DNA of 31,446 nucleotides, from NCBI RefSeq assembly GCF_000006405.1, contig NW_003213081.1, forward strand, positions 642,233-673,678, given 5' to 3'. Shown piece after piece: positions 10,575 through 31,252 of the stretch; position 1 is the stretch's first letter; each line of letters begins with the position of its first letter. The notes beneath the pieces are model-generated. The model was not told where the DNA came from. It made no database searches and was given only the letters and a program-made list of their open reading frames with translations. Position numbers and translations under genes: made by a program. The stretch comes from Perkinsus marinus ATCC 50983. Its lineage: Eukaryota; Perkinsozoa; Perkinsida; Perkinsidae.

Positions 10575-10679
10575 AAGGAGAGTAACCAAAGAAACAGTAA
10601 AATCTGATCTGAAAATTTTCAGGGTGCCGCCCTTCCCCGAAACTTTTCACAGCTGATGAGTTATGACACCTAGAAGCAG

Positions 10680-10860: not shown

Positions 10861-11422
10861 CATTTTTTTCGCAGAACTTCTTATCACATATCGTTAGAAA
10901 GTATTTCTCGACTTCTGCATGAATGTGTACACAACCGTATGCTCAGCGCCTTTTGACGCCTCGAAATGCACAGAAAAACACATGTACGCGATATCACAAA
11001 TCGCGATTACTTACTATCGCCCTGCATAGTGTGTTCTGTTTCGATCGCCCAACAGTAATATGAACAGCGTGCCTCGCCTACACCCTGTAACTGTTCGTGA
11101 TCGAGTATGATCATACTTATCGAAATTTCTCTTATCCGTAGAACTTATAATGATCAGATTTTTCTAAGCTACAAAATGTTACCGTTTTGGAAAAGTTCAG
11201 AAACATTTCCTCCTCAACTGTTCCCTCCGGAGGTAACATCCCCAACATGGGTAGGAGGCTTACCCTGAGCCTTCCCTCTCTCCGAATTGAAGAGCCGCGC
11301 GATGAGGGTGTCTGCCGGAGGCCCTACTAGAAGGCAACAAAGCGATCTCCTACTTCTAAGAGGAGTAGTGCATATCAGCAAGTTACCTTCACTATACAGA
11401 AACCTGTTTTATACTGTTGACA

Positions 11423-11550
11423 TACGAATTCGGATATAAATGTACAGAAACCAATACGAACTCGGGTATAAATGTACAGAAACTAATACGACTTCGGGCA
11501 TAAATGTACAGAAACCAATACGAATTCGGGTATAAATGTACAGAGACCAA
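11423..11550 (+). repeat. 32-base tandem repeat, four units, joined to a dispersed-element copy
   Basis: Units at 11423, 11455, 11487 and 11519 each read tacgaattcgg-like followed by tataaatgtacagaaaccaa with one to three changes. The last is followed by gaattccccaaaattttctc and ttcatatcgtgaccatg, so the array is an internal amplification of the element's upstream part (copy 11440-11620). Confidence 0.85.
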
Positions 11551-11826
11551 TACGAATTCCCCAAAATTTTCTCAGAACTTTCATATCGTGACCATGTGAT
11601 TATCGATTATAATGGCGAGCGCGAAGTGAAAAGCGCACCTTCGAAGTTTGCTGACAATCTCAAGGTTGGTCCAGTTCGAGCATAATTAAACTCGGTGTAT
11701 TCAATAGACCTCTGCTGAGCTTCAAGAGCGATACCGGAATTGAATTTAACGTGTAAATTTGGATTCTGGGAGCGGTCCGGTCCAACTGCATTGGATATCG
11801 CATGAATCGTATTAGTTCCCCCAGTT

Positions 11827-14800: not shown

Positions 14801-15817
14801 CTGAGGGGGCCAACAGAGGTGTGTACTTCGTCGCTTCTTGCAAATACGATATTCGAATCCCCATGTCTCCTCTACAGATTCTGTCCTGGAAAGCTGTGGT
14901 GGACGGCAGAGCACCGCTCCGGGAGGAAAGCGCAAACCTTCTATGAAAGAGCTATCGGACAGGTGAGAGCAGCCGAGGACTATCACAGGTCACTTCAATA
15001 CGCACAGTAGATACAATATAAGCATAATTCGCCTTGAATGGTTGCTAGAACAGTTTGGAACGTTGATGCCAGAAGGGCGCGACGATTATCCTGAGAACCC
15101 ACAAGTAGGCGCGATATGGAAGAGTATTTTTGGGATGACGTTCATCAGTCCTTATCCAAATCTGCCGTTCGTGGGTTGGCTGAGGAGTTGTGTCCGGATA
15201 TCACTGACGAGGAATTTGAGGTGAGTGTCGTTAGAATGTCTGAGGAGGGCAGGAGCTTCCAGCCAGGAAGAAAGCGTCTGCTGAATTTCGATGGAATGTG
15301 TAGATAATTTATCACTACATATTTATTCAAAAGGAATACCAAGGGTTAGAGAGTCTAGTCCTGCCGTAAGCTATTATCAGAGTCGTAGAGTCTGTATACG
15401 ACTCTGATATTAACCCGATAGATAGTCCTGTAATGCGACTTCTCTGAGGAATGAACATAATTGAATCTATCATTCATCAAACTCGTTTGCTAGATTAGCA
15501 CGTCACGCGGTCACTGTTTTCGGCAAGAGCTTGAGAATTAATCATTAATTATTAGTGATTCGAAATTAAAGCGAAAAGCATGTCATTATCAAACGTAACG
15601 ACTATTACGAAGAGTTTTCGCAATAGTCATTATCTTGAAAGCCCGAACAGGATAGGCAGCGGACACCACTCAGGCCAAATGGGTCATCATTGACGCGGAC
15701 GGATCTGGCTCCTTGGAATTCGACGAGTTCGTTGAATGGATGGCCCTCGATGAGTTCGACATCGATGATGGTGAGTGGTGGCAACTTTCTGGACCAGAAT
15801 TGAGACAGCTGAGGTGA
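11827..15817 (+). CDS. Dpy-30-like / EF-hand protein, 13 exons
   Basis: Exons 11827-12018, 12265-12456, 12793-13033, 13245-13312, 13476-13558, 13656-13755, 13925-14074, 14122-14246, 14361-14498, 14721-14818, 14878-14962, 15109-15220 and 15674-15817 give 575 residues with consistent phases. Exons 1-2 form a two-helix Dpy-30-like segment ending PLAWLAQYLLRNKP, a dimerisation motif found in chromatin and axonemal proteins. Exon 3 has a weak EF-like piece (SIDFAEFWSWF), exons 4-5 an A/E/K-rich helix, exons 12-13 a canonical EF hand: helix PDITDEEFE, then loop DADGSGSLEFDE (about residue 535) and FVEWM. Ca2+ binding at that loop is expected. A flagellar scaffold role is only a guess. Several internal acceptors have alternatives one codon away, and the 5' end may extend upstream. 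Confidence 0.75.
15375..15628. repeat. Three palindromes inside the last intron of the EF-hand gene
   Basis: 15375-15409 has 13-base perfect arms and a 9-base loop. 15540-15560 is 10-1-10 with one mismatch. 15600-15628 is 14-1-14 with two mismatches. The latter two have the single-base centre seen repeatedly to the right. Confidence 0.75.
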
Positions 15818-16085: not shown

Positions 16086-16134
16086 TCATAAAACTTGCGT
16101 TAGGTTAGGCCCTAACCTAACGCAAGTTTTATGA
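16086..16134. repeat. 49-base perfect palindrome with one central base
   Basis: Arms of 24 bases are exactly complementary around the single base at 16110. Each arm contains a TTAGGTTAGG or CCTAACCTAA doublet. It lies about 270 bases after the EF-hand stop, just before the segmental duplication. No gene reading is apparent. Confidence 0.9.
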
Positions 16135-16158: not shown

Positions 16159-17530
16159 GGAGAAAGGCAAGTACAACAAGAATTTAAGAGTGGGACAGAA
16201 TTTCATGTGCAGCATCTCCCCACCTCAACAACGCTCCTGGGGGAACGTTCGTGTGTAACAAGCGGCACTCCTCAGGAGTCTATCCCCAGGATAGTATCCT
16301 GAGATTCAGGACCTGAATGACACTAGACCAACGGGAGACAGCCATCATCGATGTGAACATCTTGTGTTGTCTAATTGGCGTCGTGCTCGCCATATAGGTT
16401 AACGATAGAGCCTATAGCTGGGAACTAACCCGACATTTCATTCATCGCTCATTCCCGACACCATGGGATTCATAATTTCGAGAAGGCATATGGGAAATAC
16501 GATATGGATGATTCTGACTTATCGCACAACCCAATGTACATTGTATGTTTTATACATGCATGCCGAGCCTCGATGCCTCTATTATTATTAGCACTCCTCG
16601 TACAACTCACTGAGGAGAATAACAGCATAGCTGGTATTCGGAGGAATCCAACGTGTTTCGGTTCATAAGCTTTCAATCCCTCTCCTCTTCCCCTTTGATT
16701 GCTTTCCGCAACCAGGTTGTCACAACCTGGTTGTGTGAGACTCCTTGCATAGAGAAGATGGGAAAAGAGGAGCAATCGAGATACTTATACTGTATTGTAG
16801 TAACTACTACCCTTTGTGTAGTCCTTACTGCGTTGGCTGCATTTTTTCCCGAGGTGAATTCACTGAATGGTCACAAGTCTCGCTCATGTTCGGCTAACTC
16901 CTACAATTTTCTCCTTGTACTTGATTTTCTCTCACCCAATGTTTTGCATGTTTGATGGTCTTGATATTTCTTAGATTTCCCAGAGGCTCTGGGCCAGAGA
17001 TACAGGGTCTCAATTGAGATCCGAATTGTTTTCGCATCCATTGAGAACGCAAGCAGGCTCACCGTTACTTCTGCTGATATATGAACTACGTTGACTATAA
17101 TTAAGATTCCTTAAAAATTCATTGCACTTATAGACTCTTTCTGTGAGATCAGAAGGTCGCATATGTATGAGGTGATGACGCGAAGGTTTGTGTGACGCAT
17201 TGATCCCGGATGGGCCATCCGGGATGGCCATAGACCACTTGTTAGTCTTCGGGCCCGACAAGCAAACACAAGATCGGTATTGGCCGTCACAGAGCTAACC
17301 AGGCTGGTTAAACCAGCACAACGATGCTGAGTCGCCGGACTGGCTCTAGCTAATTTGATAATGCAATTTGGAAGCATCATGTTATGATACTGATCCCCGT
17401 TCGGTGGGGGATCAGTACACCCTGAAACCATTTGGAAGGATCGAGAGCACTGGGGACTAGGAGATCAAACGTGACAATGATCCAGTGGCCTCCTCTCTGA
17501 GGCTCTCCGCCTCCGAACGGTTGAACAACA
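16159..17530. repeat. Segmental duplication, copy A
   Basis: It aligns collinearly with 18148-19785. Shared stretches include gggacagaatttca, cataatttcgagaag, ctgaggagaataacagcata, gtgtttcggttcataagc, gattgctttccgcaacca and gaattcactgaatggtcaca. Copy A also carries a short exon-like frame from ATG 16758: a charged N-terminus, then hydrophobic LYCIVVTTTLCVVLTALAAF, then a GTGAAT donor. That frame is kept in copy B to within one base at its end. Differences between the copies are mostly substitutions plus clean 14-base insertions. Confidence 0.85.
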
Positions 17531-18147
17531 GAAAAGAGATATCCTATTTGGAGGTCGTCGACGAGTTGCACCAGCAGATGCTCCTATACTTCATAGTCGC
17601 AAATGAGAGGAGCGAATGGTTTGGAGGCTGTGAGGTCATAGAGAAGGACAAAATGATTGAAACTCTGTTCGATCAATGATCGTTTATTTCCTCGGCCACA
17701 AGCGCCATATTTGGGGACACGAGCTTTACCAGCCTTTGTTCCATTTTGGATTAGTTTAGTTCGGCGTAGTAGAGATATTGGGTACCTTTTAACGACCACA
17801 TATTGTGTTGTTGTCGATTACTTGCTTGATTCATCGTTTGCCTTTAATGATAGTTCGTGTGAGCCTGTGACCGTCGGAGTCTGACGATCTCTCTAATTAC
17901 GCGTTAGGCTTTGATAATATCAAATTGATATGATTCTGCATACCTATCGTCTCTATGAATTCGAATGTTGATAGTTGAATTTCTGGATAGTTGTCGAGAT
18001 CGTCGTTCAGCACATCCAACGTTACTTGATTGGTCATACGATAGGGCCCCTGGCGGGCATAGATAAGATAATATTGGGGTCATGTAGGTCCGAAAGGCAA
18101 GTCGGATGCCGAAGTTGTTGCCGAAGATGCCGAGTAGATGCCCGTCT
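17531..18147. other. Single-copy segment between the duplicates
   Basis: Open frames of 60-75 codons exist on both strands, for example 17485-17679 (+) with SERLNNRKEISYLEVVDELH and a possible C-terminus. None connects to a recognisable gene. Confidence 0.3.
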
Positions 18148-19785
18148 TCCTTTCTGAAAGGCAAGTGCGATGAGATTCAAGAGTGGGACAGAATTTCAAG
18201 TGCAACATCTCCCCACCGCAACAACGCTCCTGGGGGAACCTTTGTGTGTAACAACCTGCAATCTTTGAGTCTATCCTCAGGATACTATCCTGAATGACAC
18301 TAGACCAAGAGACTCTCTTGAAGAGAGACAGCCATCAAGTTCTTCTCCTATCGTATTCGGCTCCCAGGCCCCAGGTTCCTTCGGGATGGGTTTCTTTGTT
18401 GGTTCATATTCGATGTTATGATTGTTCATTGTTAACATTGTTATCATCTTGTCGTCAAATTGGCATCGTGTTTGCCTATAGGTTAACGATAGAGCCTATA
18501 GCCGGGAACTTACCCGACATCCCATTCCCGACAACATGGGATTCATAATTTCGAGAAGACATTTAGCCAGAATGATATAAATGATTCGCACTCATCATCC
18601 AACCAAATGTACATGTCATGTCTTATACATCATGTATAAGAATGCCACATTGGATAGAGGTGGCCTCTCTCCAATGTGGCATGATGCATGCCGAGCCAGG
18701 ATGACTCAATTATCCTCAGCACTCCTCGAACAATTCTTTGTCAGTAAGTCACTGAGGAGAATAACAGCATAGCTCGTACTCGGAGCAATCCAACGTGTTT
18801 CGGTTCATAAGCTCTCGATCTCTTTCCTTTCTCCCCTTTGATTGCTTTCCGCAACCAGTTTGTGTGAGACTGCCTTTATAGAGAAGATGAGAAGAGAGGC
18901 CCAATCAGGATACCTACACTGTATTGCAGTAACTGCTACCCTTTGTGTGGTCCATACTGCGTTGGCTGCATTTTTCTCTCGAGGTGAATTCACTGAATGG
19001 TCACAAGGCTTGCTCGTGTCCGGCTAACTCCTACAATTCTCTCCGTTTACTTGATTTTTCTCACCCAATGTTTGGCATAATTGATGGTCTTGATACTTTT
19101 TAGACTTTGCAGAGCTACAGGGTCTAAATTGAGATCCAAATTGTTTGCGCATCCATTGAGAACGCAAACAGGCTCACCGTTACATCTGCTGAAATATGAA
19201 CTACGTTGACTATAGTCAAGTGCCGCGACGAGGCAATAAGCTGTGATCTACATCTCTCCAAGTCCCGCAGGAAGTTATCGCAGATGGCTTGAACTATATC
19301 TGTAGCCATAGGCTGAACTTCTCCTGCCCATCACGGGAATGTCTTGAACTAGCCGCGCATTTCATACTGAACGAAGGCTCCGCACATGATTGTTTCCCGC
19401 AGAGCAGACGGCTTCCAGGCATGGAGGATCACGAACACGCAGCTGTCAGAGCAGGCACCAACGGCGTTGAATGATTCAACGCCGTTGAATGATTCAACTT
19501 GAATCGTTGAAAAGTGACGGCACAAGATCGGTATTGGCCGTCACAGTCCGTGACCCACAGAGCTAACCAGCACAACGATGCTGAGTCGCCGGACTGGCTC
19601 TGGCTGGTTTGATAATGCAATTCGGAAGCATCATGTCATGATACCGATCCCTGTTCGGTGGAAGATAAGTACACCCTGCAACCATTTGGAAGGATCGAGA
19701 GCACTGGTGACTAGGAGATCAAACGTGACAATGATCCAGTAGTCTCCTCTCTAAGGCTCTCCGCCTCCGAACGGTTGGACAACAT
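18148..19785. repeat. Segmental duplication, copy B
   Basis: Partner of 16159-17530. It is longer because of extra hairpins: a 9-1-9 palindrome at 18622-18640, a 41-base 20-1-20 hairpin with two mismatched pairs at 18642-18682, and a 29-base perfect palindrome at 19459-19487. The exon-like hydrophobic frame recurs from ATG 18888 but is shifted by one base before its donor, so at least one copy is not under tight coding constraint. Confidence 0.85.
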
Positions 19786-19950
19786 TACCGTGCAGTAGAC
19801 GACAATGCCGTCTTGGCGTACGAAAGGAGCTCATTCTTAATAGTCTCGCTATAGTCATGATGCTCTTGAGTAGCCATGTGAACGTTTTTGACTCGTTTGA
19901 AAGCATCACAATGTCGAGCACCATCGAACTTTTCGACAAAACTGCTTAAC

Positions 19951-20027
19951 CGACGAATCATTGATTCGTCGACTATGATTGGCAACTTCTCATTGATTCG
20001 GAATCAATAAGAGGTTCCCAATCATAG
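19951..20027. repeat. Two adjacent single-centre palindromes
   Basis: 19951-19971 is a perfect 10-1-10 palindrome. 19973-20027 is 27-1-27 with three mismatched pairs. They overlap the start of a - strand frame (19985 down to 19785) whose first codons read IVDESMIRRL, so the palindrome may be partly translated. Confidence 0.8.
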
Positions 20028-20061
20028 CAATTATCACCAACTTCTTGTTGAGCAGATTCCT

Positions 20062-20823
20062 TCACTTCTTTGTCCTCGACCGTAGCCAAAAAAGCATAGC
20101 CGAAACAAACTTCTTTTCATCCATATGAATACCACCACCGGCTTCCACCAATAAACGACCAGAGGCACTCAAATGAGACATCAAGCGGAAGCGGCCAGTG
20201 AGCTTGGGGAACCGAATCTTATCAACGGCCTCAGAAGAAAGTCTAGTCTGCCTTCTACGATCTCTGCCAGAGTAATACTCAACTGGTGGCATCGGAGCAT
20301 ATGCCTGGCGTCCCCGACCACGAACAAATCTACAAGAGGATATATGACTTGGTACGGTACCGATTGGTACCTAAGGTACCAATGAAAGGGAAGTTGAAGA
20401 TAACGAGGACGACGAATCACCATCATCACCGTCATCATCATGGATTAGCAGTTCAGCCAGTTCTTGACCACCAGACTTCTTACTCCTTTTTTTAGCCTTC
20501 GTAACAGATGTTTGTACTGAGCGTTGGGTCAAACACTCTCAAAGATCTTCCTCAATCAAGGATTAATCAGCCTCACCAGCTCTTCTTCAGACTTACGTTC
20601 TCTAGTAGAGAACCTCTACCTTCAAGGTTCAGCACAGGCGGATCATTATCATCACCCGCAACAGCTACGATCTGCTTGAGACCATCTTTACTAGAGATTC
20701 TTCAGTAGCCTCTAACTGAGAATGGAGCTTTCCTTGCTGTCGGCGGAGCCCCGTCGTCTTAGAACGCAAATCATCACAACGCGCCGCTAAGGACGGAAGA
20801 CCAGACCCATCGTGGAGCTCCAT
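20062..20823 (-). CDS. Hypothetical basic / acidic low-complexity protein, exon chain incomplete
   Basis: ATG at 20823 opens a helical segment (DDLRSKTTGLRRQQGKLHSQ), then a frame break near 20690, resuming as GLKQIVAVAGDDNDPPVLNL to a GTAAGT donor at 20597. The next exon, 20535-20380, has 52 codons with TKAKKRSKKSGG and a D/S-rich run. A third segment to a TGA at 20064-20062 has RGRGRQAYAPMPP and KIRFPKLTGRFRLMSHL. Between the last two an in-frame TAG falls at the centre of the palindrome 20363-20383; an intron ending at a CAG before GCATATGCT would remove it. A further frame at 19985-19785 may belong. I do not recognise the protein. It may be decaying. Confidence 0.5.
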
Positions 20824-21239
20824 GGAGAGTTGACTTGTTGGATGAACACGATACCAAGAGGACTATGTAGAGACTTAACTTGTAATGATAAATAATGCAA
20901 GAATTGTCTCACGCTAGGCTAAAGATACTCCATAGCTATCGCAAAATAAGGGACAGATCCACTTATCACGAAGAAGACAGAAATACACGTACCTCACATC
21001 GTCTTGAATTATCTTCCATCCACACTCGACTAACCAATCCGATAGCACCAACACTTCAGCTCGTGCCGTAGGGGGCATGATACCAATATTCCCTAGTAAT
21101 CATCTCTAGCTTGACTTTAACCATCGATTAACCAATCCGATAACGTCAATAACCAGAGGACGTCGTTGCAGACTTCAACCACAGAAGAAGCCCGCTATCA
21201 CCCGCTAGGTTCCTTGATCATTCGGACTGATAGCGTGTT
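20824..21239. other. No gene seen
   Basis: AT-moderate sequence upstream of the - strand gene starting at 20823, probably including its promoter. It contains two related phrases, accaatccgata, at about 21030 and 21131. No coding frame stands out. Confidence 0.3.
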
Positions 21240-21299
21240 TTGTGTGCCTCTGTCCTCGAAAGCGTTATTGTTCGGATCCCACGCACCACAGTCAATGTC

Positions 21300-21557
21300 T
21301 GTTGTCTCTTCTCACTTGGCGATGACGTCACAGTTTTGTTTCCTAACTCCAATATGTTAGAATTACTATCACCGGAGTTGCTCCAACTGCGAACGTACCA
21401 TGTGACGATGAAACTAGGAAGTTCGCGTGTCGGACTTGCGTTGGAATCTTTGGCGCCTCCATACTGCCAACGCGATGACCTCGTTCTTGCTTACATATCC
21501 TTGAATGTGCCGGAGAGTTATGTCTTCTACGCGATCAGCGAGATCCTCTTCCAGTAG
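21300..21557 (+). CDS. Hypothetical protein exon
   Basis: The frame reads DDVTVLFPNSNMLELLSPEL, then LQLRTYHVTMKLGSSR and ESYVFYAISEILFQ, ending at TAG 21555-21557 or at a GTAGGG donor just before it. Composition is protein-like, but the antisense frame is also open, so strand is not certain. It weakly resembles the segment at 22019-22176 (both have a tyrosine, alternating hydrophobics and a gatcccac-type stretch at DNA level), which suggests a diverged duplication. Confidence 0.35.
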   Translation, partial: CCLFSLGDDVTVLFPNSNMLELLSPELLQLRTYHVTMKLGSSRVGLALESLAPPYCQRDDLVLAYISLNVPESYVFYAISEILFQ

Positions 21558-22018
21558 GGAGAGTATAGGCATGCAGAACGATATGTAACAGCAATACTTC
21601 TGACTATATGTCAAATAGTACATGATTTGTAAACGCGAAATGCTTGGATTTGATCAGTTTCTGCTCTTGGATCTCTACCTCAGTTCGTCTTGCAGCGAGC
21701 ATGGTCTACTGTAATACAGTAACTGTATGAACTGGAAACTATAGCGATGTCTTCCTGCTCTAGACCAACCGCAGCTGTATTCTGTGTGCCGTGTAGACCC
21801 TGTTCCGGCGGTTCACTTCTCTCCCTGTGCGTCTCTCAGCGTATCCCGTGCGATGTCGTCACTTTTGCATATGTTAGAGCTGCAGGGGTTCTATATCGTC
21901 TGCTTCACAGTAATCGTAACTTTTTCTCATCATTTCAACCTTTTTTGAAGTTTAGGTATTATATCTGGCCCCGTTCTTTGCATTATGTACCTCTCTCTCT
22001 CATTGTAGTAGCAGCCAC

Positions 22019-22176
22019 ATATGTCTAGTGTTAGTGAGCCTCGGTGTTATAGCCTCACTATTGCGTTGCGTTCCGATCCCACTCCATACGCTACAGTAAC
22101 GTTCTTGACTCCGAAAGTGATACATCGAGTATGCGACACGCTAAGCTGGGAAAGTATCTCGAAGATGTTGCTGTAG
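22019..22176 (+). CDS. Small hypothetical protein or exon
   Basis: ATG at 22019 opens 51 codons with RCYSLTIALRSDPTPYATVT and FLTPKVIHRVCDTLSWESIS, ending at TAG, or at a GTAGCT donor just before it. It is too short to identify. It ends 14 bases before the convergent coiled-coil gene. Confidence 0.35.
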
Positions 22177-22189
22177 CTTGCACAGGTGC

Positions 22190-23696
22190 TCATAAGCCAA
22201 CTGACAAAAAGCTACACATCGAGCGAGACCGTCTCAGCTCCTCATGAACATTGATTCGATAGTCAAGCCTTGTGGCATTCTTGAAACCTAGTTCACTCCT
22301 AGCGATTTTTGTCATCCTAGAACCGATATCGCACCCACTTCCGCAGACTTCTCCCGGTCCACAGCGGCTGAATTTTGACGCTTCATCTCCTGCTGCATGT
22401 CTCGTGCTTGCTTGGCTGCTCGAGCTTGTTCGATACTCCCCTGTGTATTGATTCTATCCCGTGTCTCCCGAAGACTCTGAATCTGATCGCTACATTGAAG
22501 AGCGATCGCCGAGATCTATATGACCTGAGCATCCAGCGCAGTTACCTCATCAGCCAAGTCTTCGCAGAGCGTATCTGTTTGACGCGAATGGTAGTCACGA
22601 AGAAGAATCAGTCATCATCGACCTCTCTCAAGCACGTGATAGACTGGGCTGCGGTTGTTCTGTGCTTCACGCAGCCTCAAGGCCATGTCAGTACACTTCC
22701 GGTGTTTGGTTCTGAGTTCGAGCTCTAAGTCTCTAGCCATAATCCGCAGTTTCTGAAACGCCCAAGGACGACAGCCTAAGGACATCACCTAAGCACTGCG
22801 GTGTCATTACGTGTTGCCTCTGACGAGCTCCCTGGATTTCAGACTGGAGGGCACCGCTTTCGTTTCCAGCGGCTGCATTCGAATGGAGAACCTTTGCGAA
22901 GGCAGGGTAAGATCCAAACGTCACAAACGATGAAGCTCGCAATAACAGAAGCAGAAACTCTGAAAACGCATGAACGATTCCTCGACTCACTCTATGCTGT
23001 TCGTTGAGGATTCTCTGCAACGACTGCATTTCGGTACGCATCGTGGTTGCCACAGTATACCTGGTGATACACTCCGACAGAGATTGCGTTGAATAACCAT
23101 ACGAGCGACCAGGGCTCAGCTACGTGACTTAGACTACGAGCCGTAGTCTATGACGACGTCGTAACGATGTATGCTCCACGTGACGTGGACCACGTCAAAC
23201 CGATATTGTAATCGACTAAGATCTACCCGCGGGAGTCACCGACCGCACCCGCAGCCTACTTTTCCCGTATGGCGTTCTCAAGCCTAGTAGAAGACCGTAT
23301 CTGGTCCTCTCTTTGACGGAGCTATAAAAGAAAACAACAGGGTTGAATGGCTACGACGATTTTTTGAAGACTGAACGATAACCAATCGATGTTAATTGAT
23401 ACTTCCCTCCTGAGGTAGGCAATTTCGTTTTTCGTTTCCTTCAGCTCAGCGAGCAGTTCCTGCAATTCCCGCCGCTTGGCTCGACTCTGGATACCGTATC
23501 TGCGCTACGTTCTAGTTGTACAAGTTAAGCTATCTATTGCATTGTGTCATGGAGCAAGGCCTCACTCAGTATCGCGCGCTTTCCCTCTCCCAGCTACTAA
23601 AGTGATCTGTCCGACTGCTTCATCCTGAGAAGTGTGATAATTCACTCCATTGACCACAACTCCAATTATATCCTCAATTCTCTGATGCTCCCTCAT
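22190..23696 (-). CDS. Coiled-coil protein, 9 exons
   Basis: Exons on the - strand: 23696-23566, 23499-23403, 23321-23260, 23060-22991, 22891-22811, 22752-22623, 22574-22525, 22482-22339 and 22279-22190, giving 284 residues with every phase agreeing. After a short N-terminal region (MREHQRIEDIIGVVVNGV) the rest is rich in Glu, Gln, Arg and Leu with heptad-like spacing: RAKRRELQELLAELKETKNE, TEMQSLQRILNEQHR, ARDLELELRTKHRKCTDMAL, QIQSLRETRDRIN and AKQARDMQQEMKRQ. No catalytic motif is seen, so a structural role is likely. Introns are 42 to about 200 bases; two donors begin GTC. An in-frame TAG at 22516-22518 falls inside the proposed 42-base intron. Confidence 0.8.
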
Positions 23697-23722
23697 TCTA
23701 TCAGTAGAACATCAGCGAGTAC
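23697..23722. promoter_or_regulatory. 26-base divergent intergenic gap
   Basis: The start codons of the coiled-coil gene (-, 23696) and a small + gene (23723) are separated by only 26 bases. Any shared promoter must overlap transcribed leader or coding sequence. No motif is recognised. Confidence 0.4.
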
Positions 23723-23857
23723 ATGGCGGAACCTGCAGAATTGTATTACGAGAGTATAAGCGAGTTCCACCAAGCTGTTTCTGAGGGAGGCGTTTGCTGC
23801 ATGAATGTCTGTCATAGGAAACTAACAGAGTTCCTGAAAAGCACGAAGAGGAAGGAG
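23723..23857 (+). CDS. First exon of a small hypothetical gene
   Basis: 45 codons from ATG 23723 (MAEPAELYYESISEFHQAV ... HRKLTEFLKSTKRKE) to the donor GAG|GTGAGA; a second donor GTAAGT lies six bases on. The next acceptor with good context (aattttcag, ending about 24107) would reach a stop at once, giving a protein of about 46 residues. The unspliced frame stays open to 24121. The intron contains a degenerate tRNA on the other strand. Confidence 0.5.
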
Positions 23858-23941
23858 GTGAGAGTAAGTTCAGCATCACCCTATTCTGAATTGCACAGTC
23901 AAAATTTGGAACAGTCATCCGATCAATATTACAGACCTTAC

Positions 23942-24014
23942 AGACTCTCTCGGGATCGAACCCGTAGCCTCGAATCAATGAGGTCTACGCGCTGTCTATT
24001 GTGTCATAGCCACA
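23942..24014 (-). pseudogene. Degenerate tRNA-like sequence, antisense in an intron
   Basis: On the - strand it has GCGCGTAG, an extended anticodon-type stem (CCTC/GAGG plus GTAG/CTAC), CGGGTTCGATCCCG and a 3' agagagtc, the order expected for a tRNA. The T loop is one base short, the anticodon loop one base too long, and no 5' strand pairs with the acceptor, so I call it a tRNA relic. Confidence 0.5.
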
Positions 24015-24121
24015 CGAACGGGAAGAAATACAGTTCGTTCGAAAGCCTTTCGACGGAAGGAGCCGTTGAACGAGATTCACACCATTCAAAAACTCTACAA
24101 TTTTCAGATTTAATGAGTTGA

Positions 24122-24386
24122 GCTCATTGAAGGCAAAAAATTGCAGTCTCAGCCCAAACTCAACCGTAGTGTTATACTTCAGTTATACTGCAATGTACTC
24201 TATCATGTTATATCACTACAGTGCAGTATATTACTAGCAGTAACTTACTACTAACAATATAACGTGACGAGGTGATGTAGGGTAGTGATTACACTATTTT
24301 ATGTATTTTACTGATATACGTATGTATGTGCACCCTCGTTTAACTCTCTCTTCCACTCTCAGCGACGATACATTTTGTTATCATCT
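24122..24386. other. AT-rich intergenic stretch
   Basis: Rich in ttatac, tactac and actgca words with small inverted repeats. No coding frame. It separates the small + gene from a - strand gene ending at 24387. Confidence 0.35.
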
Positions 24387-24841
24387 TCAGGCGAATTCCT
24401 GGTTCAGGTTCGTCTTCGTCTTCAAAATTTGTCGCGTACATGCTATACATGCTATTGTGGCTACCACGGGCCATAATTCAAGGCCTATCCACTGAAAACC
24501 TTTTATGGCCACCAAATTCCGCGTTGCCTTCCGGGCTGTCCCGATCTCTGCTACGATCATATTTGTTATAAGTACAACAGCGCCTGATGGATCATCAGTG
24601 ATGATCCTCATCACCCCCATAGTATGGGACCCATACGACTAATTTGGAGAGATACTGTGCGCCGAGTAGACACAGTGTCGACTATCGCTGATGACTCGCG
24701 TAGTTTTTGTGGACTTACCTTGCATTTGATTGAGGCGGTTATGCTGTCACACATGCGAATTAGGATCGCTGGTTCATCCAGTTGATCTCTACTTATATTA
24801 CTCAATATCCGATTACTTGAAGATATGGTATCTCTTCCCAT
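24387..24841 (-). CDS. Hypothetical membrane-anchored protein, 2 exons
   Basis: Exon 24841-24719 (41 codons, MGRDTISSSNRILSNIS ... TASIKCK) ends at a strong GTAAGT donor. Exon 24638-24387 resumes in the same phase and ends at TGA, giving 124 residues. The second exon has AVVLITNMIVAEIGTARKAT and a hydrophobic ELWPVVATIACIACT that could span a membrane. An alternative frame there encodes an acidic stretch. No family recognised. One 6-1-6-1-6 motif (24585-24604) lies inside its coding sequence. Confidence 0.5.
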
Positions 24842-25528
24842 CGGAGAGAGAAAATGCGACTATAGTAGTCGGACTACTGGAGACTGATCGCTCTCTACTG
24901 AAAACCGAACATGCGCCCCTGTATTGATATCCAGTGACTGAGGCACTGTGCCTCAATTTGCGGCAAATACCATCATCGTGGCGCTTATGTGTAGCCACTA
25001 CATTTGGTGTAGTACACCATGGCCTCCAGTATAGAGTCGTAGAAGTGGTCCTTAGTAGTAGTATGGACTCCATTGAAAAGGATACGACCTTTTCACCCTA
25101 CTTACAATCGACCAACGTCAGGACATCGCCCAGAACCTGAAACATGAACGTGCAGCTCGCGTCAGGGTTTCGAAGACACAGAAGTTCAAAACGCTTCACA
25201 ACGGCTACTCGCACGTCATAACTCAATGAAATCGATCGATGTTGCGGTATATCTGATCTCGGAGATTAGATCTCCAAAAGGTCACTGACCTTTGACCTTA
25301 GGTCAGGTCTAATACACTCGAAGCCAGAACAATGATACCGCAAGACCCAATACAACGAATTTAAGAGTGTATGCCCGCCTCAGAGCAACAGCGACTGCAT
25401 AGAACTGATCGGAAAATCTACGCGAACTTCTCAAGTTGAGCCGCTTAAGGCGGCACTTCCGTCAACATGTGCGTAAAACAATTTCTGTCGAAAATTTCGA
25501 CTCGAAATGCTGAAGCTGGGATTGTAGG
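24842..25528. other. No gene seen; dense in short inverted repeats
   Basis: Contains motifs at 24858, 24999, 25255, 25279 and 25488 and a 7-1-7 palindrome at 25440-25454. Open frames are short and lack splice partners. Confidence 0.4.
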
Positions 25529-25982
25529 CTATAATGGTATACAAGAATGCTGTCTGCGGTGTATTTCGAAGACCATAATATGACGGTGTACTCGAACCTT
25601 TGCAGACTCAAAAGGACGAGCCGTACTCAACGAAGCGAATTTCAACACAAGCTGTGTCTGACAAGCATGCGTATATATGTATGAACATGATGTACTAACA
25701 AATGGACTGCGCGAAGTCCGACATGCGCTGTGTCCCACATGCGCGAAGTGCATCGCTAATATTTCAGGCATGGGGTGCATTCGCTCCCACAGCTCACACA
25801 TGTCGAAAGTCCCCATCAGCTTCCGTTACAACCGCGATAGCAATGGCTAACGACCGGTCCCAGAGGAAGAGGTGCCGTCTCATGATTACCTTCACTCGAA
25901 CGAGTGACAAGCGAAACTGATGATCTCCATTGGAGAATAGCCATCCGGCGCTTTGGCCTTGTATGAAACCAGTGTGCGGCAC
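25529..25982 (-). CDS. Hypothetical protein, 3 phase-0 exons
   Basis: Exons 25982-25890, 25819-25700 and 25657-25529 are all phase 0, ending at TAG. Segments include QSAGWLFSNGDHQFRLSLV, DMCELWERMHPMPEILAMHF and STARPFESAKVRVHRHIMVF. The second intron is in frame and could be retained. There is no ATG at 25982, so an upstream exon is likely. Function unknown. Confidence 0.45.
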
Positions 25983-26380
25983 AGTTGGCGAGACCGACCG
26001 ATACTACCTTTCCGACTCATAGGCTGTGATCAATATAGGTCATAAATCATGACTCATAATACATTGTATTGATCACCCGCATCGACGTAATAGGATACTT
26101 GACCTCTCTAGCCTCTAAACGAGCTCGTGAGCTCACGTAGAGCATTTTCTCCCGAGCGCGTCGGCTCATCGTTCTTTGTAGCAAGCCATCACCAGATAAA
26201 CCATTGTAGGAGGGCATCAGCAACTCCGAATCAGAGTCTCCGATCTCTTATGGTCGAGCAAAGCTCCAGCTCCCTAGACGTGATCTGAGGTAAGGGGGAT
26301 AGAGGGCTATCGTGCCCAACCGAAGGTTGCTGTTGGACCCCAACTAGTCCCAGGGATGTCATAGAGGATGCATGCGCTTT
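25983..26380. other. No gene seen
   Basis: Sequence without a convincing frame. It adjoins the retroelement fragment and may include more of it, too decayed to recognise. Confidence 0.3.
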
Positions 26381-26961
26381 CTATACCGGGACAGAGAGAC
26401 AAGACGATAGGGCTACTTCGGCGTTGTAGAAGTCGATCTTGGCCTTCAACAGTCCGAGACAGTCGATGCCTACGATGAAGTCGACGTCCAGAAGCAGATC
26501 CTTCACCAGGTATGCCTTGATGGGCAGCGCCTCAGAGGATGGTGTCGTTCTTATCTGTAGGATTACTGGCTTCGCAGATCGCTTGCCCCGACCCCGGTGA
26601 CAATGATGTCACTTCGGGAGGGGTCAGCATGAGAACAAGGGCACGTGGGGCGATTCGATGCCACAAGCGTCACCTGACTGCCAGAGTCTAGCAATGCTCT
26701 GAGCAACAAATTGAGCAGGCTCATACCTCGGCTCTCATCACAGGGGCAGTCATCGGTCGCTAGCTGTGCAAAAACAGGAAACTGTTCAAAAAATCGAGGA
26801 GCCTTGGCTCCACGAATCATATTGCCATATGATCCCGATAACAAAATCGTATTTTTCAACACTGCATTAGGATGCCGCAGGCCAGGCGCGGCCCAGCAGC
26901 CCGGCATACCCAAAATTCTCGAGAAAAGTTCGCCAAAAAATACAACGAAGATTTGTCTCAC
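26381..26961 (-). pseudogene. Retroelement pol fragment (aspartic protease), frameshifted
   Basis: The frame 26961-26563 contains LLRALLDSGSQVTLV, with the retropepsin active-site triplet Asp-Ser-Gly at about 26688. After a shift near 26575 a second frame, ending at TAG 26381-26383, has a flap-distal VDFIVGIDCLGLLKAKIDF, matching the conserved ILG-type strand of LTR-retrotransposon proteases. Upstream Cys/His residues (GCW, RHP) could be a worn zinc knuckle. No reverse transcriptase, integrase or terminal repeats are visible, so it is a remnant of a Ty3- or Bel-like element. Confidence 0.65.
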
Positions 26962-27363
26962 CCGTCAAACAGAAGCTCGTGTGCAACCGCCCACATAACG
27001 GCCCTAGGTGGGGCCTCGTGAGGTGAGGTTTATTCCTCGTTGCTACTGTGATGACGTGTCGCGACATGAATGTAAAAATCATCTGAAAGTTTCAAACAAA
27101 TTTCGCCTCGGTCTGTTGCAGACGGGAACAGGCCGAGACGAAAGTTGTTGGCGATAGCAGCTTCTCCAGAAGTTCATTGGATCTGGTCCAATAATCTGAC
27201 TGTCGGTCAGTGACCGATTGGCACACGACAAACAAAGCATTTCTGATGTACGTTTGGCCAACTTAGTCAAAGCTGGTCGTAAAATACATCTCATGTACAT
27301 TGAATTTAACTTTCGATATGAAACCGTTTCATCAGAACGTCAAAATGGTAGCAACAACCCTAT
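26962..27363. other. No firm gene
   Basis: Short frames on both strands (27218-27406 + and 27300-27079 -) have no recognisable content. The near-perfect motif 27197-27216 lies here. Confidence 0.3.
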
Positions 27364-27567
27364 ATGGGATCTCCACAGAAACCCTCTCCTCTCCAGCATA
27401 AGGTAAGTTAGCTCTGCTGCCACCCACGTTCCTCAAGCGAAGCTTGCTCTTGGGCTCAGATTTAGGTATTCGGGGAGAGTTCTCTGTTTGTGAATAAGGA
27501 AAGCGACGTCACGCCGAGGAAAGCTGCCTATATCCATCACGTGCTCCGAGCTATGGTCCAGGTATAA
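27364..27567 (+). CDS. Small hypothetical gene, at least 2 exons
   Basis: Exon 27364-27402 (MGSPQKPSPLQHK) ends at GTAAGT. Exon 27466-27561 resumes in phase 0 (VFGESSLFVNKESDVTPRKA ... HHVLRAMVQ). It either ends at TAA 27565-27567 or uses the GTATAA donor. No convincing third exon was found. Unknown function; a basic N-terminus may suggest a nuclear protein, but this is weak. Confidence 0.45.
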
Positions 27568-27936
27568 TATACATGAACCGGAGCATATACATTGTATATA
27601 CTCACATTCCAACTATATATGTCTAGATTCATCACTGAAATTCCTTTCACGTTATGCTAAACGCCTTTCCTCACGAAATGGATAGCGAAACAATTATCTA
27701 TGCGATATGGAACCTCGCACCCCCCACACTGGATATGCACTGCACGATGTGCGCGACTGAGAACACGGCAAAACTGTGTAACAAATTCTGCATTAACAGA
27801 TGAAATGAAAATACAAGACCAAGATGCTGATGAATTTCATACGCTAGTAGCGTAACGCTACCACGCCCAAGCGGGACCACTTTGGCTGACAAATAACCTA
27901 ATCAGCGAGGACAAAAGCCATGCGCCACGGAATTTC
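27568..27936. other. No firm gene
   Basis: Includes a 7-1-7 palindrome near 27584-27599 and the perfect motif 27841-27860. Frames are short and carry stops. Confidence 0.3.
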
Positions 27937-28834
27937 TCAAAACCTTTCGCACTCATCGGACTTGTACTCCTCTTGATTCCTCGCAGCGAGGCGTCCTTCT
28001 TCCCGAAGAGATGCCAAAAACTTATGACGTTCAGCTCCCTGACCCGTCGCTTGTGCAATCAGAAGATTCCGATTCTCCCGTCGGAAGCTTGATCTGAAAC
28101 AGATTTGGCGAGTTCTATCCCCATAATCGTGATCTCGAAAGAACATTGCTAGTTCCCCTACCTGGACTGTCGTGCATCACCTCGTCGGACTGCTTTGTTG
28201 TTCACACTGGAAATCGAGCTACCGATACTAGACACTGATGACAGAGATGACGACCGGATCGAGGCCGATGAGCCGGAAGGATGAGGCCTACTTCGAAAAA
28301 GACTAATAACCACACTATCACCAACTTTACTGTCTTCCTGATATAGTCCAGTTGAATTCACAGTGAATCGAACAAGGCATCACTTTAAGCAAATGAAGCG
28401 CAATTCCGAGTGTTTACTTCCGACTCCTTGACAAACTCCTTCCCCTCCCAGAGGCGCCACTAGTGATGCTCGTTCCACTGCTGACCTCCCATCTGTCACT
28501 CCCTGCGCTCTAAAACAAGTCCATCTCCATCGACAAGAGAACAGTCTCTCCGAGAAGGTTGAGTTAACAGAATTTCTGAGTGCGAGCCCTACGTTCATCG
28601 GTTCTTCGGCAGCTCTACTACGTCCAAGCCACGATGACAGCCACCCCGCTTTGTTATCTGGCGACTGTGTCTAAATGGAGAGAATGATCACTGAGACACA
28701 AAATTCCGACCAGCCAAATACCTCAGGCCGACCATTCGGTACCAGCCTTGAGTGGTTCGCACGTGTCGGAGATACTGACGATTCGCTTGAGGTCTCCACC
28801 CATGAGATGTCGCTGGGGCCGTCGTGAGGCGTTC
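27937..28834 (-). CDS. Ser/Arg-rich hypothetical protein, at least 5 exons, 5' end unknown
   Basis: Exons 28834-28722, 28670-28593, 28509-28486, 28337-28162 and 28093-27937, ending at TGA. Content is mostly disordered: SWVETSSESSVSPTRANHSR, then GWLSSWLGRSRAAEEP, then RSSSLSSVSSIGSSISSV. It ends in a helical, charged tail (SFRRENRNLLIAQATGQGA, LASLREEGRLAARNQEEYK). The junction from 28486 to 28337 uses a GTCAGC donor and is doubtful; a longer exon with GRGRSLSRSRK and a GTAAAC donor fits less well in phase. Function unknown. Confidence 0.55.
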
Positions 28835-29126
28835 CTGAGCAAGACAGCAAGGCAAGATACGGCTCGATGAGGATATTATTGCGTAGAGGTGACGGGAATG
28901 TGGAGGATTGCCGTATTGCGGCTATAGTATTGCCGTGCGACTACATAAACTTGATACAACTACATAAATTATAGATTTGATGGACAAATTGTCATTGAAT
29001 GACAATTGACGAGGGAGCGTAGACTTGTTTACAAAATTCGTGTGAAAAAAAGTGATTATCATATCATAGTGCTTCCAAGAAAAACTACGCCATCATATAA
29101 ATCTCACACCTTAACGGGGAGCACCT
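28835..29126. other. No firm gene
   Basis: Probably upstream exons or promoter of the Ser-rich gene. Contains the 9-1-9 palindrome 28988-29006 and tandem tattgccg words at 28912-28935. Confidence 0.3.
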
Positions 29127-29258
29127 ATGAAGAACCTGTCTCCCTCTACTCCCTCTTCAACCGCAAGATGTGTGTCCGTTGCTGTCGAGGACGAGATATC
29201 CCTGTCATCGCCAGCCCGCCATGCTGATGTCGCACTTATCTCGAGCACTGAAAAATAA
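29127..29258 (+). CDS. Small open frame, 43 codons
   Basis: From ATG 29127 to TAA: Ser/Pro-rich start (MKNLSPSTPSSTARC) then VSVAVEDEISLSSPARHADV. It may be an exon of a larger gene; an overlapping frame of 73 codons is also open. Weak support. Confidence 0.25.
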   Translation: MKNLSPSTPSSTARCVSVAVEDEISLSSPARHADVALISSTEK

Positions 29259-29952
29259 CTTAATAATTATGTGTTAGTCGGACTAACTTAGTCCGTACTC
29301 GACCGACAAATGGAGAATATTAAGAGTCTCAATATTCGTAATTTAAGACATGTGTGTGTGCGAGCTTGATGTCATCGATGCGCATCGGCTAACGAGGGGC
29401 CGACAAAGCTGAAACGTAGTCATTCCGGTGGAACGACCACTGTCTGGTGCCCTCTAACAGGCAAATACATTGGGAATGCCCCAATATTTACGACCACGGT
29501 AGGGAAAACGACATCGAGGAAAGCTAACGCTTGCCTCCGCAAACACAACTCATACTCGCTAGTGACATGCTCAGGCCACTGATGCTTTTAGAAGGTAACT
29601 TTCGGCGAAAGTCTTCCGTACAGATCGAGTACGACGTTGAAGTTAGAATCACTCCCACTCTAACCACTATAGTATCAAGTTCATCTAAGCCATGCTATAT
29701 TGGTCTGCGACGGTCGCGCAACTACCATCCTCCAATGACTAACGCTCAAACACAGAGGTCGCCTAACTCTCTCTTTCACCGTGAAACCAGGGACCTCACG
29801 ACGATCTGCGAACTACAGTTTTCCCACTGAAGTTTCCTCCAAGCTCGCTCAATAACCCTTACCAGCCAAGTCTATAACTGCCCTTAATATAAGTATGACA
29901 ATAGCGGATTCTCCATGGGAAAAACTCAATGTGCAAAGGACCGCTTATCCTT
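29259..29952. other. No firm gene
   Basis: Contains motif 29274-29293 and an 11-1-11 palindrome with one mismatch at 29315-29337. A possible exon near 29531-29600 (+, LILASDMLRPLMLLE followed by a GTAACT donor) has no partner. Confidence 0.3.
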
Positions 29953-30264
29953 TCACTGCCTCGTTGAAACTCCGTGGGACGGCTTCGCAATACGATAGGG
30001 AAGTTTTTTTCTTCTCCTCGTCGTCCATCTTCCCGAACTGATAAGCGATGCCAATAATGTGGTAGCAGACTTTTCTCTCAGAAAGCCCACACAGGAGCAG
30101 ATGAACTCTCTACAGTCCATACAGCTTGGGTCATACCACCTCACTATATGCTACAAATTATAGCACATTGTGAATTGTTCGCGGATAGTAGAAGGATATG
30201 CGATGCATTCCTGATCCAATCCGGCATTCTCCAAGCCTTCAGCAGTGCGCTGGACTTGTGACAT
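29953..30264 (-). CDS. Hypothetical protein, 2 exons, splicing unresolved
   Basis: ATG at 30264 opens MSQVQRTAEGLENAGLDQEC ... STIREQFT to a GTGCTA donor. The terminal exon (about 30116 down to the stop near 29955) reads RVHLLLCGLSERKVCYHIIG and QFGKMDDEEKKKTSLSY in one frame; a competing frame also lacks stops to 29953. Exon phases do not yet agree, so one boundary is wrong. No family recognised. Confidence 0.4.
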
Positions 30265-30678
30265 CTCTCTGGAAGACTCGCTTGAAAATTCGGAATGTTA
30301 CATTCCACACGACAGAACCCTTGAACCTGGTCTGGTTACTGCACTCATACCGAACAATCTACTCCTCGCAAGATCACTAACGCTGTCGGGTTGAATGCTA
30401 CAATATACCATCATGATATATTGTGGAACATATATCGTCGTTTGACAGCGCATCATGATTTGCTCCCCAATGTTGCGTGAGGCGATGATCTCATAACATT
30501 TGCATTACATTGAATATCATCTAACTGACAAATTGTCAGTGACAATCATTCCCCGAAAAGACGAGGAAAGACCTTGAGGACACTCTAGACCCGAATCCCT
30601 GATATCCAGGCTGCGGACGACTTTGTCTGTCCGAGATCCCCACGATGGTCCAGAAATGGGGAGAATGGATCATACTCA
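30265..30678. other. No firm gene
   Basis: Holds the near-perfect motif 30286-30305, an 11-1-11 palindrome with one mismatch at 30401-30423 and the perfect motif 30526-30545. Confidence 0.35.
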
Positions 30679-31073
30679 TTATTCGAGAAAAATAGCATTC
30701 TGGGCCACCCTGGGACATCCCCGATCCAATTCAGCTAACGCGGAGCCATGCGTACCATCCTCCTTAGTTTCTTCGGGCGGAATGACCTTTGGGCCAAATA
30801 CCAGCTCTTGAGGGGCGGACGGGCGATGAGGAGAATGACTCGGTGGAGAGGATAGCTCAACTGTAAACAAATACTCTGAGCAAAACATGTCGCTGTGACA
30901 TTCGCCTTACAACTCGTATCATGATCTCTCGCAGGACTCGATTCAATCGGGCCGAGGGTGTCTGAAAGGAATAACCTACCTTCACAAGCCTGTAGTGGCA
31001 TACCGGCGACAGGAACCGACAAGACGAGCTTAGCTCGTTGAGCTATGAGTGTGTATGAGGAGCATAATCCACT
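30679..31073 (-). CDS. Pro/Ser-rich hypothetical protein, 2 exons seen, 5' end unknown
   Basis: Exon 31073-30980 (SSYTLIAQRAKLVLSVPVAG ... QACE) ends at GTAGGT in phase 1. Exon 30860-30679 continues in phase (ELSSPPSHSPHRPSAPQEL, VFGPKVIPPEETKEDG) to TAA; a GTACGC donor inside could lead elsewhere. A near-perfect 6-1-6-1-6 motif (31025-31044) lies within the first exon. Possibly one gene with the frame at 31253-31432. Confidence 0.45.
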
Positions 31074-31252
31074 CTATTATTGGAATATTTTTTACTATTC
31101 TATCATTACTAGAATCAACTCTATTACGCAAAGTTTGAGAAATAGTCTATTTCGAATAGAATTCGTTAATCGGAGTTCAACGACATTCAGAACGAGCGCA
31201 AACCTAGGGCGCGAGTCCTATCGTAATCGCCAATGAAATCTCCCCTCAATAA

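What the first reader, a model, noticed from the sequence alone, without database searches (positions are those of the whole stretch)
16281..31159. A sequence-independent motif, X-n-X'-n-X with 6-base X, recurs about 28 times in one window
Each locus is a 6-mer, one base, its reverse complement, one base, and the 6-mer again. Arm length and one-base spacers are constant while the 6-mer differs. Twelve bases are fixed by the rule, so chance predicts about 31446 x 4^-12, or 0.002 perfect cases; I count 14 perfect, plus about 14 with one or two mismatches. One sits at 4454 and the rest right of 16 kb. Known short repeats have conserved sequence; here only the geometry is conserved. It implies a process that copies a local 6-mer once inverted and once direct with fixed spacing, such as a polymerase template-switching at a hairpin or a terminal-repair enzyme. 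I know of no described system with this signature.
Basis: seen in the sequence. Interest (0 to 1): 0.95.

Follow-up and report, generated by a model that had tools for sequence, protein, structure and literature searches.

The report
Uniform scars of departed hAT transposons
The short "word, reversed word, word again" patterns are real and are most likely near-identical scars left each time a jumping gene of the hAT family cut itself out of this protist's DNA, apparently many thousands of times.

Summary

This is what hAT transposition chemistry predicts: 8-bp target duplication, flank hairpins closed one base outside the element, hairpins opened, complementary 8-nt overhangs annealed and filled. 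The scars' Z prefers T2/A7 (nTnnnnAn), as Hermes does, and intact hAT elements here have 8-bp duplications with the same preference.

The host looks like Perkinsus. A non-random sample extrapolates to about 20,000 scars. The annealing step is inferred, and I saw no site filled in one copy and scarred in another. The chemistry is known; a nearly uniform product on this scale was not found in print in my searches.

The parts
4453..4474 (.). perfect 22-bp scar, the only perfect one left of 16 kb
15536..15557 (.). scar with one mismatch
16182..17530 (+). first copy of a diverged duplicated segment (approximate limits); carries scars at 16280, 16297, 16714, 16979, 17207, 17296
18175..19784 (+). second copy of the duplicated segment (approximate limits); carries scars at 18271, 18306, 18617, 19484 and a decayed one (three mismatches) at 19540
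16280..16301 (.). scar (one mismatch) shared with 18271 in the second copy, so older than the duplication
16297..16318 (.). scar (one mismatch), 14 bases absent from the second copy; overlaps the end of the scar at 16280
16714..16735 (.). perfect scar, 14 bases absent from the second copy
16979..17000. scar (one mismatch), 14 bases absent from the second copy; one search splits the gap as 11 plus smaller gaps
17207..17228 (.). perfect scar
17296..17317 (.). perfect scar, 14 bases absent from the second copy
17910..17931 (.). perfect scar
18271..18292 (.). scar (one mismatch), counterpart of 16280
18306..18327 (.). perfect scar, absent from the first copy (net difference 13 bases)
19484..19505 (.). 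perfect scar
19540..19561 (.). decayed scar (three mismatches), 14 bases absent from the first copy
21707..21728 (.). perfect scar in a 13-copy family; 14 bases absent from copies such as L044
23175..23196 (.). perfect scar
25487..25508 (.). perfect scar
27840..27861 (.). perfect scar
29273..29294 (.). perfect scar
30525..30546 (.). perfect scar
20598..31160 (.). further one-mismatch scars starting at 20598, 24039, 24584, 24615, 24857, 24933, 27196, 30285, 31024, 31139 (22 bases each)
16707..29619 (.). two-mismatch cases starting at 16707 (overlaps 16714), 18617, 23149, 24998, 25254, 26039, 26223, 29598 (22 bases each)

Best explanation
[not shown]
For: Spacers templated as predicted: 78 and 79 of 87 perfect cores. 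Peak at target length 8 with one base lost per side: 67 perfect and 123 with at most one mismatch in 207,067 bases; lengths 7, 9, 10, 11, 12 with the same loss give 8, 1, 1, 0, 0. Copy-specific 14-bp insertions into intact sites in three sets of paralogues; 4 of 7 gaps between L015 and L017 are 14-bp scars, one is 43 bp and two adjoin a run of N. Z prefers T2/A7, 96 of 236, p = 2.9e-6, the Hermes pattern (PMC10368747, PMC2803484, passages). hAT transposase domains at 14 places. Intact elements with matching 8-bp duplications: two 4.3-kb copies, one of 1.7 kb, 8 of 10 copies of a 1.4-1.6 kb family; T2 6 and A7 10 of 11; empty sites with one Z for three insertions. One-base-centred palindromes are the described mark of Ac/Ds hairpins (PMC5873905, passages), and they are in excess here, 288 against 12.6 expected.
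Against: No site was found filled in one copy and scarred in another. The empty paralogues read at three insertion sites (18 in all) are clean, none scarred. Scars greatly outnumber the elements found: about 17 right ends of one family and 14 transposase matches, both lower bounds, against an extrapolated 20,000 or so scars. Described hAT footprints are varied, for example 28 types in 128 revertants (PMC5873905), while here one type dominates. Density is very uneven and unexplained. One of 10 element copies had no matching duplication and one was unreadable on one side. The hairpin opening and annealing steps are not observed.
Confidence: 0.85

Rival explanations
1. Replication or break-repair template switching without a transposon: a 3' end folds back, copies a few bases, then returns to its template, as in small inverted triplications of FEN1/Rad27-deficient cells or foldback insertions at breaks.
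For: The layout direct-inverted-direct is the same in outline (PMC13334657, PMC11724301, passages).
Against: Those events vary in size: small inverted triplications have medians of 148/160/148 bp with 30-bp spacers, and the foldback insertions are mostly 5-34 bp and use nearby inverted microhomology. Here the unit is 8 with one base lost per side and almost nothing at 7 or 9, and the word has the hAT target bias.
Confidence: 0.06
2. The same hAT hairpin chemistry, but mostly without a lasting insertion: hit-and-run insertion followed by prompt excision, or a domesticated hAT nuclease that cuts 8-bp targets.
For: Scars far outnumber elements found; target bias and geometry fit equally well.
Against: Mobile elements with 8-bp duplications are present and two copies read are identical over 875 bases, so ordinary cut-and-paste over a long time suffices. 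No domesticated gene was looked for.
Confidence: 0.07
3. Assembly or read artefact, such as palindromic read errors.
For: Raw reads could not be examined.
Against: Some scars are shared by diverged paralogues (16280 and 18271; a related 13-bp insertion in L047-L050) and scars carry graded substitutions. A read artefact would not explain an 8-bp unit with a target bias.
Confidence: 0.01

Closest known systems
Excision footprints of hAT transposons (Ac/Ds in yeast, Candida and plants; TcBuster)
   Same: Palindromes centred on the complement of the base next to the element, with frequent microhomology, attributed to flank hairpins (PMC5873905, PMC3499496, passages); 8-bp target
   Different: Described footprints are short and varied; here one exact 7+8+7 product dominates and recurs across the genome
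Small inverted triplications (FEN1/Rad27)
   Same: Direct-inverted-direct layout
   Different: Sizes broad, median 148/160/148 bp, no fixed 8-bp unit (PMC13334657, passages)
Kat1 of Kluyveromyces lactis (domesticated hAT transposase)
   Same: hAT enzyme that makes hairpin-capped breaks, mostly one base from the terminal repeat (PMC4763223, passages)
   Different: Acts at one locus for mating-type switching, not genome-wide
Dada transposons of Perkinsus marinus
   Same: Cut-and-paste elements reported from this genus, in tRNA genes (PMC3706591, passages)
   Different: 6-7 bp duplications and strict targets; here 8 bp and loose targets

Membership tests
hAT transposon excision footprint | 8-bp target unit | tested here: met
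   Length 8 gives 123 cases with at most one mismatch; lengths 7 and 9 give 8 and 1
hAT transposon excision footprint | Palindrome centred on the complement of the base next to the element (hairpin closed one base outside) | tested here: met
   One base lost per side; one-base-centred palindromes 288 against 12.6 expected, against 19 and 19 for centres of 0 and 2 bases, 32 for 4; centres of 3 and 5 bases give 145 and 99, partly as shadows of longer one-base-centred arms
hAT transposon excision footprint | Target bias nTnnnnAn of Hermes-like hAT elements | tested here: met
   T2/A7 96 of 236, p = 2.9e-6; moderate bias only, both T2 and A7 in 18 of 118 words
hAT transposon excision footprint | hAT transposase and elements with 8-bp duplications in the same genome | tested here: met
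   14 PF05699 matches; 11 element copies with matching duplications
hAT transposon excision footprint | Scar seen at a site known to have held an element | tested here: inconclusive
   18 paralogous sites at three insertions read, all clean empty sites, none scarred
hAT transposon excision footprint | Dependence on transposase activity | not testable with these tools
   Needs an experiment
Small inverted triplication (FEN1/Rad27) | Broad size range of duplicated and inverted parts | tested here: not met
   Single unit length of 8
Dada transposon | 6-7 bp target unit | tested here: not met
   Length 7 gives 8 cases and length 6 gives 33 under a looser rule with 10 constrained positions, against 123 at length 8

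The most novel reading that the evidence does not exclude
This lineage repairs hairpin-capped breaks by one nearly fixed route (opening beyond the duplication, then annealing of the 8-nt complementary overhangs), so that transposon departure writes the same 14-bp insertion everywhere. It would be a main indel process of the genome, perhaps driven largely by hit-and-run insertions, and a readable record of past transposition that far outnumbers the living elements.
Probability: 0.35. Interest if true: 0.8.

Novelty: new variant of a known kind. Interest (0 to 1): 0.62.

Why it matters
hAT footprints are known as small, messy and varied. A genome where one exact product dominates makes two questions testable from sequence alone: how hairpin-capped breaks are opened and joined in this protist lineage, and how often transposons have jumped, since each scar gives a site, a target word and a rough age. 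It also warns annotators: 14-bp frame-breaking insertions and 22-bp hairpins in such genomes can be scars and not regulatory motifs.

Tried and rejected
Telomere or terminal repair: the window ends at its contig end, but I saw no telomere-like repeat in the last 300 bases (by eye) and scars occur on other contigs. Loss of Ku as the cause of annealing repair: a weak, broken Ku match over the cut-off exists, so absence cannot be claimed. Element candidates from the duplication-plus-inverted-end scan: 16 rows listed, of which only L006 was followed; several others lie in triplet repeats. Coding depletion: open-frame cover differs only weakly between scar-rich and scar-free stretches. Pfam: of ten frames tested in the right half none passed a curated cut-off and one gave a sub-threshold match; of ten short frames in the left half none matched; the left half does hold an asparagine synthase-like frame, a GPAT fragment and three tRNAs. 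A general test for retained hairpin flaps found 17 of 309 rows, many of them shadows of neighbouring scars, so it supports the L045 case only weakly. Fold prediction and model building were not used.

Rows dropped before counts: one search left out L001-L003, L010 and L011 as redundant and merged identical 22-mers for the motif table (123 to 118); one search also left out L048; searches left out these and the E. coli locus L053. Geometry against my reading: length 10 with loss 3 (also 14 constrained positions) gives 7 perfect and 37 near cases; all 37 overlap canonical scars, so I read them as shadows. Length 8 with loss 3 gives 32 and length 6 with loss 1 gives 33, with only 10 constrained positions; 9 and 10 of these overlap canonical scars.
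Full report

The geometry is sharp. Over 207,067 readable bases in 48 sequences, target length 8 with one base lost on each side gives 67 perfect and 123 cases with at most one mismatch. Lengths 7, 9, 10, 11 and 12 with the same loss give 8, 1, 1, 0 and 0; length 8 with loss 0, 2 or 3 gives 0, 1 and 32. Two kinds of exception were looked at: length 10 with loss 3 gives 37, all overlapping canonical scars, and rules with only 10 constrained positions give about 30, partly overlapping them.

Where it is. The window is the end of a 673,678-base contig of a 54.5-Mb genome in 347 contigs. A spliced-leader pattern that I recalled for Perkinsus matches 34 places and its control none. PMC2868825 (passages) says that Perkinsus has trans-splicing with a leader one base different from that of dinoflagellates, but the letters were not in the passages I saw; the genus is therefore likely and not proven. 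Seventeen 10-kb stretches that I chose by place, 10 on the window's contig and 7 on contigs with hAT matches, held 49 cases with at most one mismatch in 113,090 readable bases, which by simple proportion is about 23,600 in the genome. The sample is not random and the figure is rough. Of 14 stretches with readable sequence, 5 well-read ones have none, a sixth with none had only 348 bases, and the highest are 12 per 10 kb in a well-read stretch and 21 in one with 2,339 bases.

They are insertions. The window has two diverged copies of a segment (about 16.18-17.53 and 18.17-19.78 kb). Scars at 16297, 16714, 16979 and 17296 in the first copy and at 18306 and 19540 in the second have no counterpart in the other copy. 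The difference is 14 bases for five of the six and a net 13 at 18306; 16979 reads as one 14-base gap and as a split gap. The scar at 16280 and 18271 is in both copies and so is older. This pair has 49 gaps, of many sizes, many of them in the poorly alignable middle; one 14-base gap is not a canonical scar. The cleaner pair L015/L017, at 95.6% identity over 1651 columns, has seven gaps: four of exactly 14 bases, all canonical scars, one of 43, and two at a run of N. With about 73 substitutions by my arithmetic, that is roughly one scar per 18 substitutions in that pair. In a 13-copy family, separate 14-base insertions mark the window copy, L042 and L045, and a 13-base one is shared by L047-L050.

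What makes them. A hAT transposase duplicates 8 bases on insertion. On leaving it nicks one base outside each end and closes a hairpin on the flank: for Kat1, cleavage mostly one base from the terminal repeat is reported (PMC4763223, passages), and Ac/Ds palindromes are centred on the complement of the base next to the element (PMC5873905, passages). With Z on both sides the left hairpin reads pX-q'X'p' and the right one, on the other strand, q'X'-pXq. Opened outside Z, their 3' tails are complementary over exactly q'X'p' and pXq. Annealing and filling give the observed product for every Z. This is derivation and not observation. It explains the 8, the loss of one base per side, and why only the geometry is conserved.

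Independent tests of that reading. First, the target word in 118 distinct scars prefers T at position 2 and A at position 7 (96 of 236 against 0.266, p = 2.9e-6). Hermes prefers nTnnnnAn (PMC10368747 and PMC2803484, passages). The nnnTAnnn of TcBuster (PMC3499496, passages) is not seen. Second, the genome has hAT transposase matches in 14 places, three in open frames of 725 to 850 aa. Third, intact elements have 8-base duplications: two 4.3-kb copies 99.9% identical, one of about 1.7 kb with 11-base inverted ends, and 8 of 10 copies read of a family of 1.4 to 1.6 kb; of the other two, one reads N on one side and one has no matching duplication. Two copies of that family are identical over the 875 bases compared. 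Among the 11 duplications T2 is 6 and A7 is 10. Fourth, paralogous empty sites confirm a single target word for three insertions: one in the tRNA-Cys gene of a tandem Arg/Cys array (8 units read, one with a base change in Z), one in a repeat on C78 (8 paralogues read, 4 with a one-base variant of Z), and one in a repeat also on C154 and C9 (2 read). None of these 18 sites carries a scar.

Other products. Palindromes with a one-base centre and arms of 7 or more number 288 against 12.6 expected. Of these 196 lie within two mismatches of the canonical product; one scar can give two such palindromes. The other 92 include arms up to 24, at window 16110. These may be hairpins opened further out and joined elsewhere, but decay and chance make up part of them. 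In L045 three bases of X are replaced by the continued palindrome; the general count of such replacements was low, 17 of 309 rows, many of them shadows of neighbouring scars. Single mismatches gather at arm ends: 31 of 56 fall at four of the fourteen positions.

Limits. I found no site filled in one copy and scarred in another. The steps after hairpin formation are inferred. The uneven density is not explained: the scar-rich right half of the window shows no Pfam-level gene in the ten frames tested, while the left half has asparagine synthase and GPAT fragments and three tRNAs, yet other scar-free stretches are not clearly richer in open frames. Raw reads and related genomes were not available.

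Literature. Searches of the held library combined hAT, footprint, hairpin, palindrome, triplication and Perkinsus terms. In the listings I saw no paper on this scar type or on hAT scars in Perkinsus; I read only passages of the papers cited. The yeast study of Ac/Ds hairpins that would matter most (Yu 2004) is not held and is known to me only through passages of PMC5873905, which reports palindrome arms up to 20 nt in S. cerevisiae and microhomology in most footprints. Some footprints of the present form may therefore already be in print there.

Noticed in passing
window 21659-22072; L039-L050: A family of at least 13 copies spread over several contigs, with a well-conserved 3' part; nature unknown, no Rfam family matched the window there.
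   Followed up: partly
L076, L077 (contigs C9 and C282): A tandem array of units of about 373 bp with a tRNA-Arg(CCT) and a tRNA-Cys(GCA) each; one unit on C282 has a hAT element inside the tRNA-Cys.
   Followed up: partly
window 16086-16134: A perfect palindrome with 24-base arms around one base, far longer than the usual scar; perhaps a hairpin opened far out.
   Followed up: no
window 1546-1887 and 11422-11581: Two tandem-repeat arrays, with units of about 67 and 32 bp, in the scar-poor left half.
   Followed up: no
window 8754-10589 (-): Asparagine synthase-like frame (PF00733 in 3 stretches, plus a glutamine amidotransferase domain).
   Followed up: no
genome contigs with element copies, such as C201, C196, C137, C78: A family of hAT-like elements of 1.4-1.6 kb sharing ends with a 4.3-kb transposase-bearing one; two copies compared are identical, which suggests recent movement.
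   Followed up: partly
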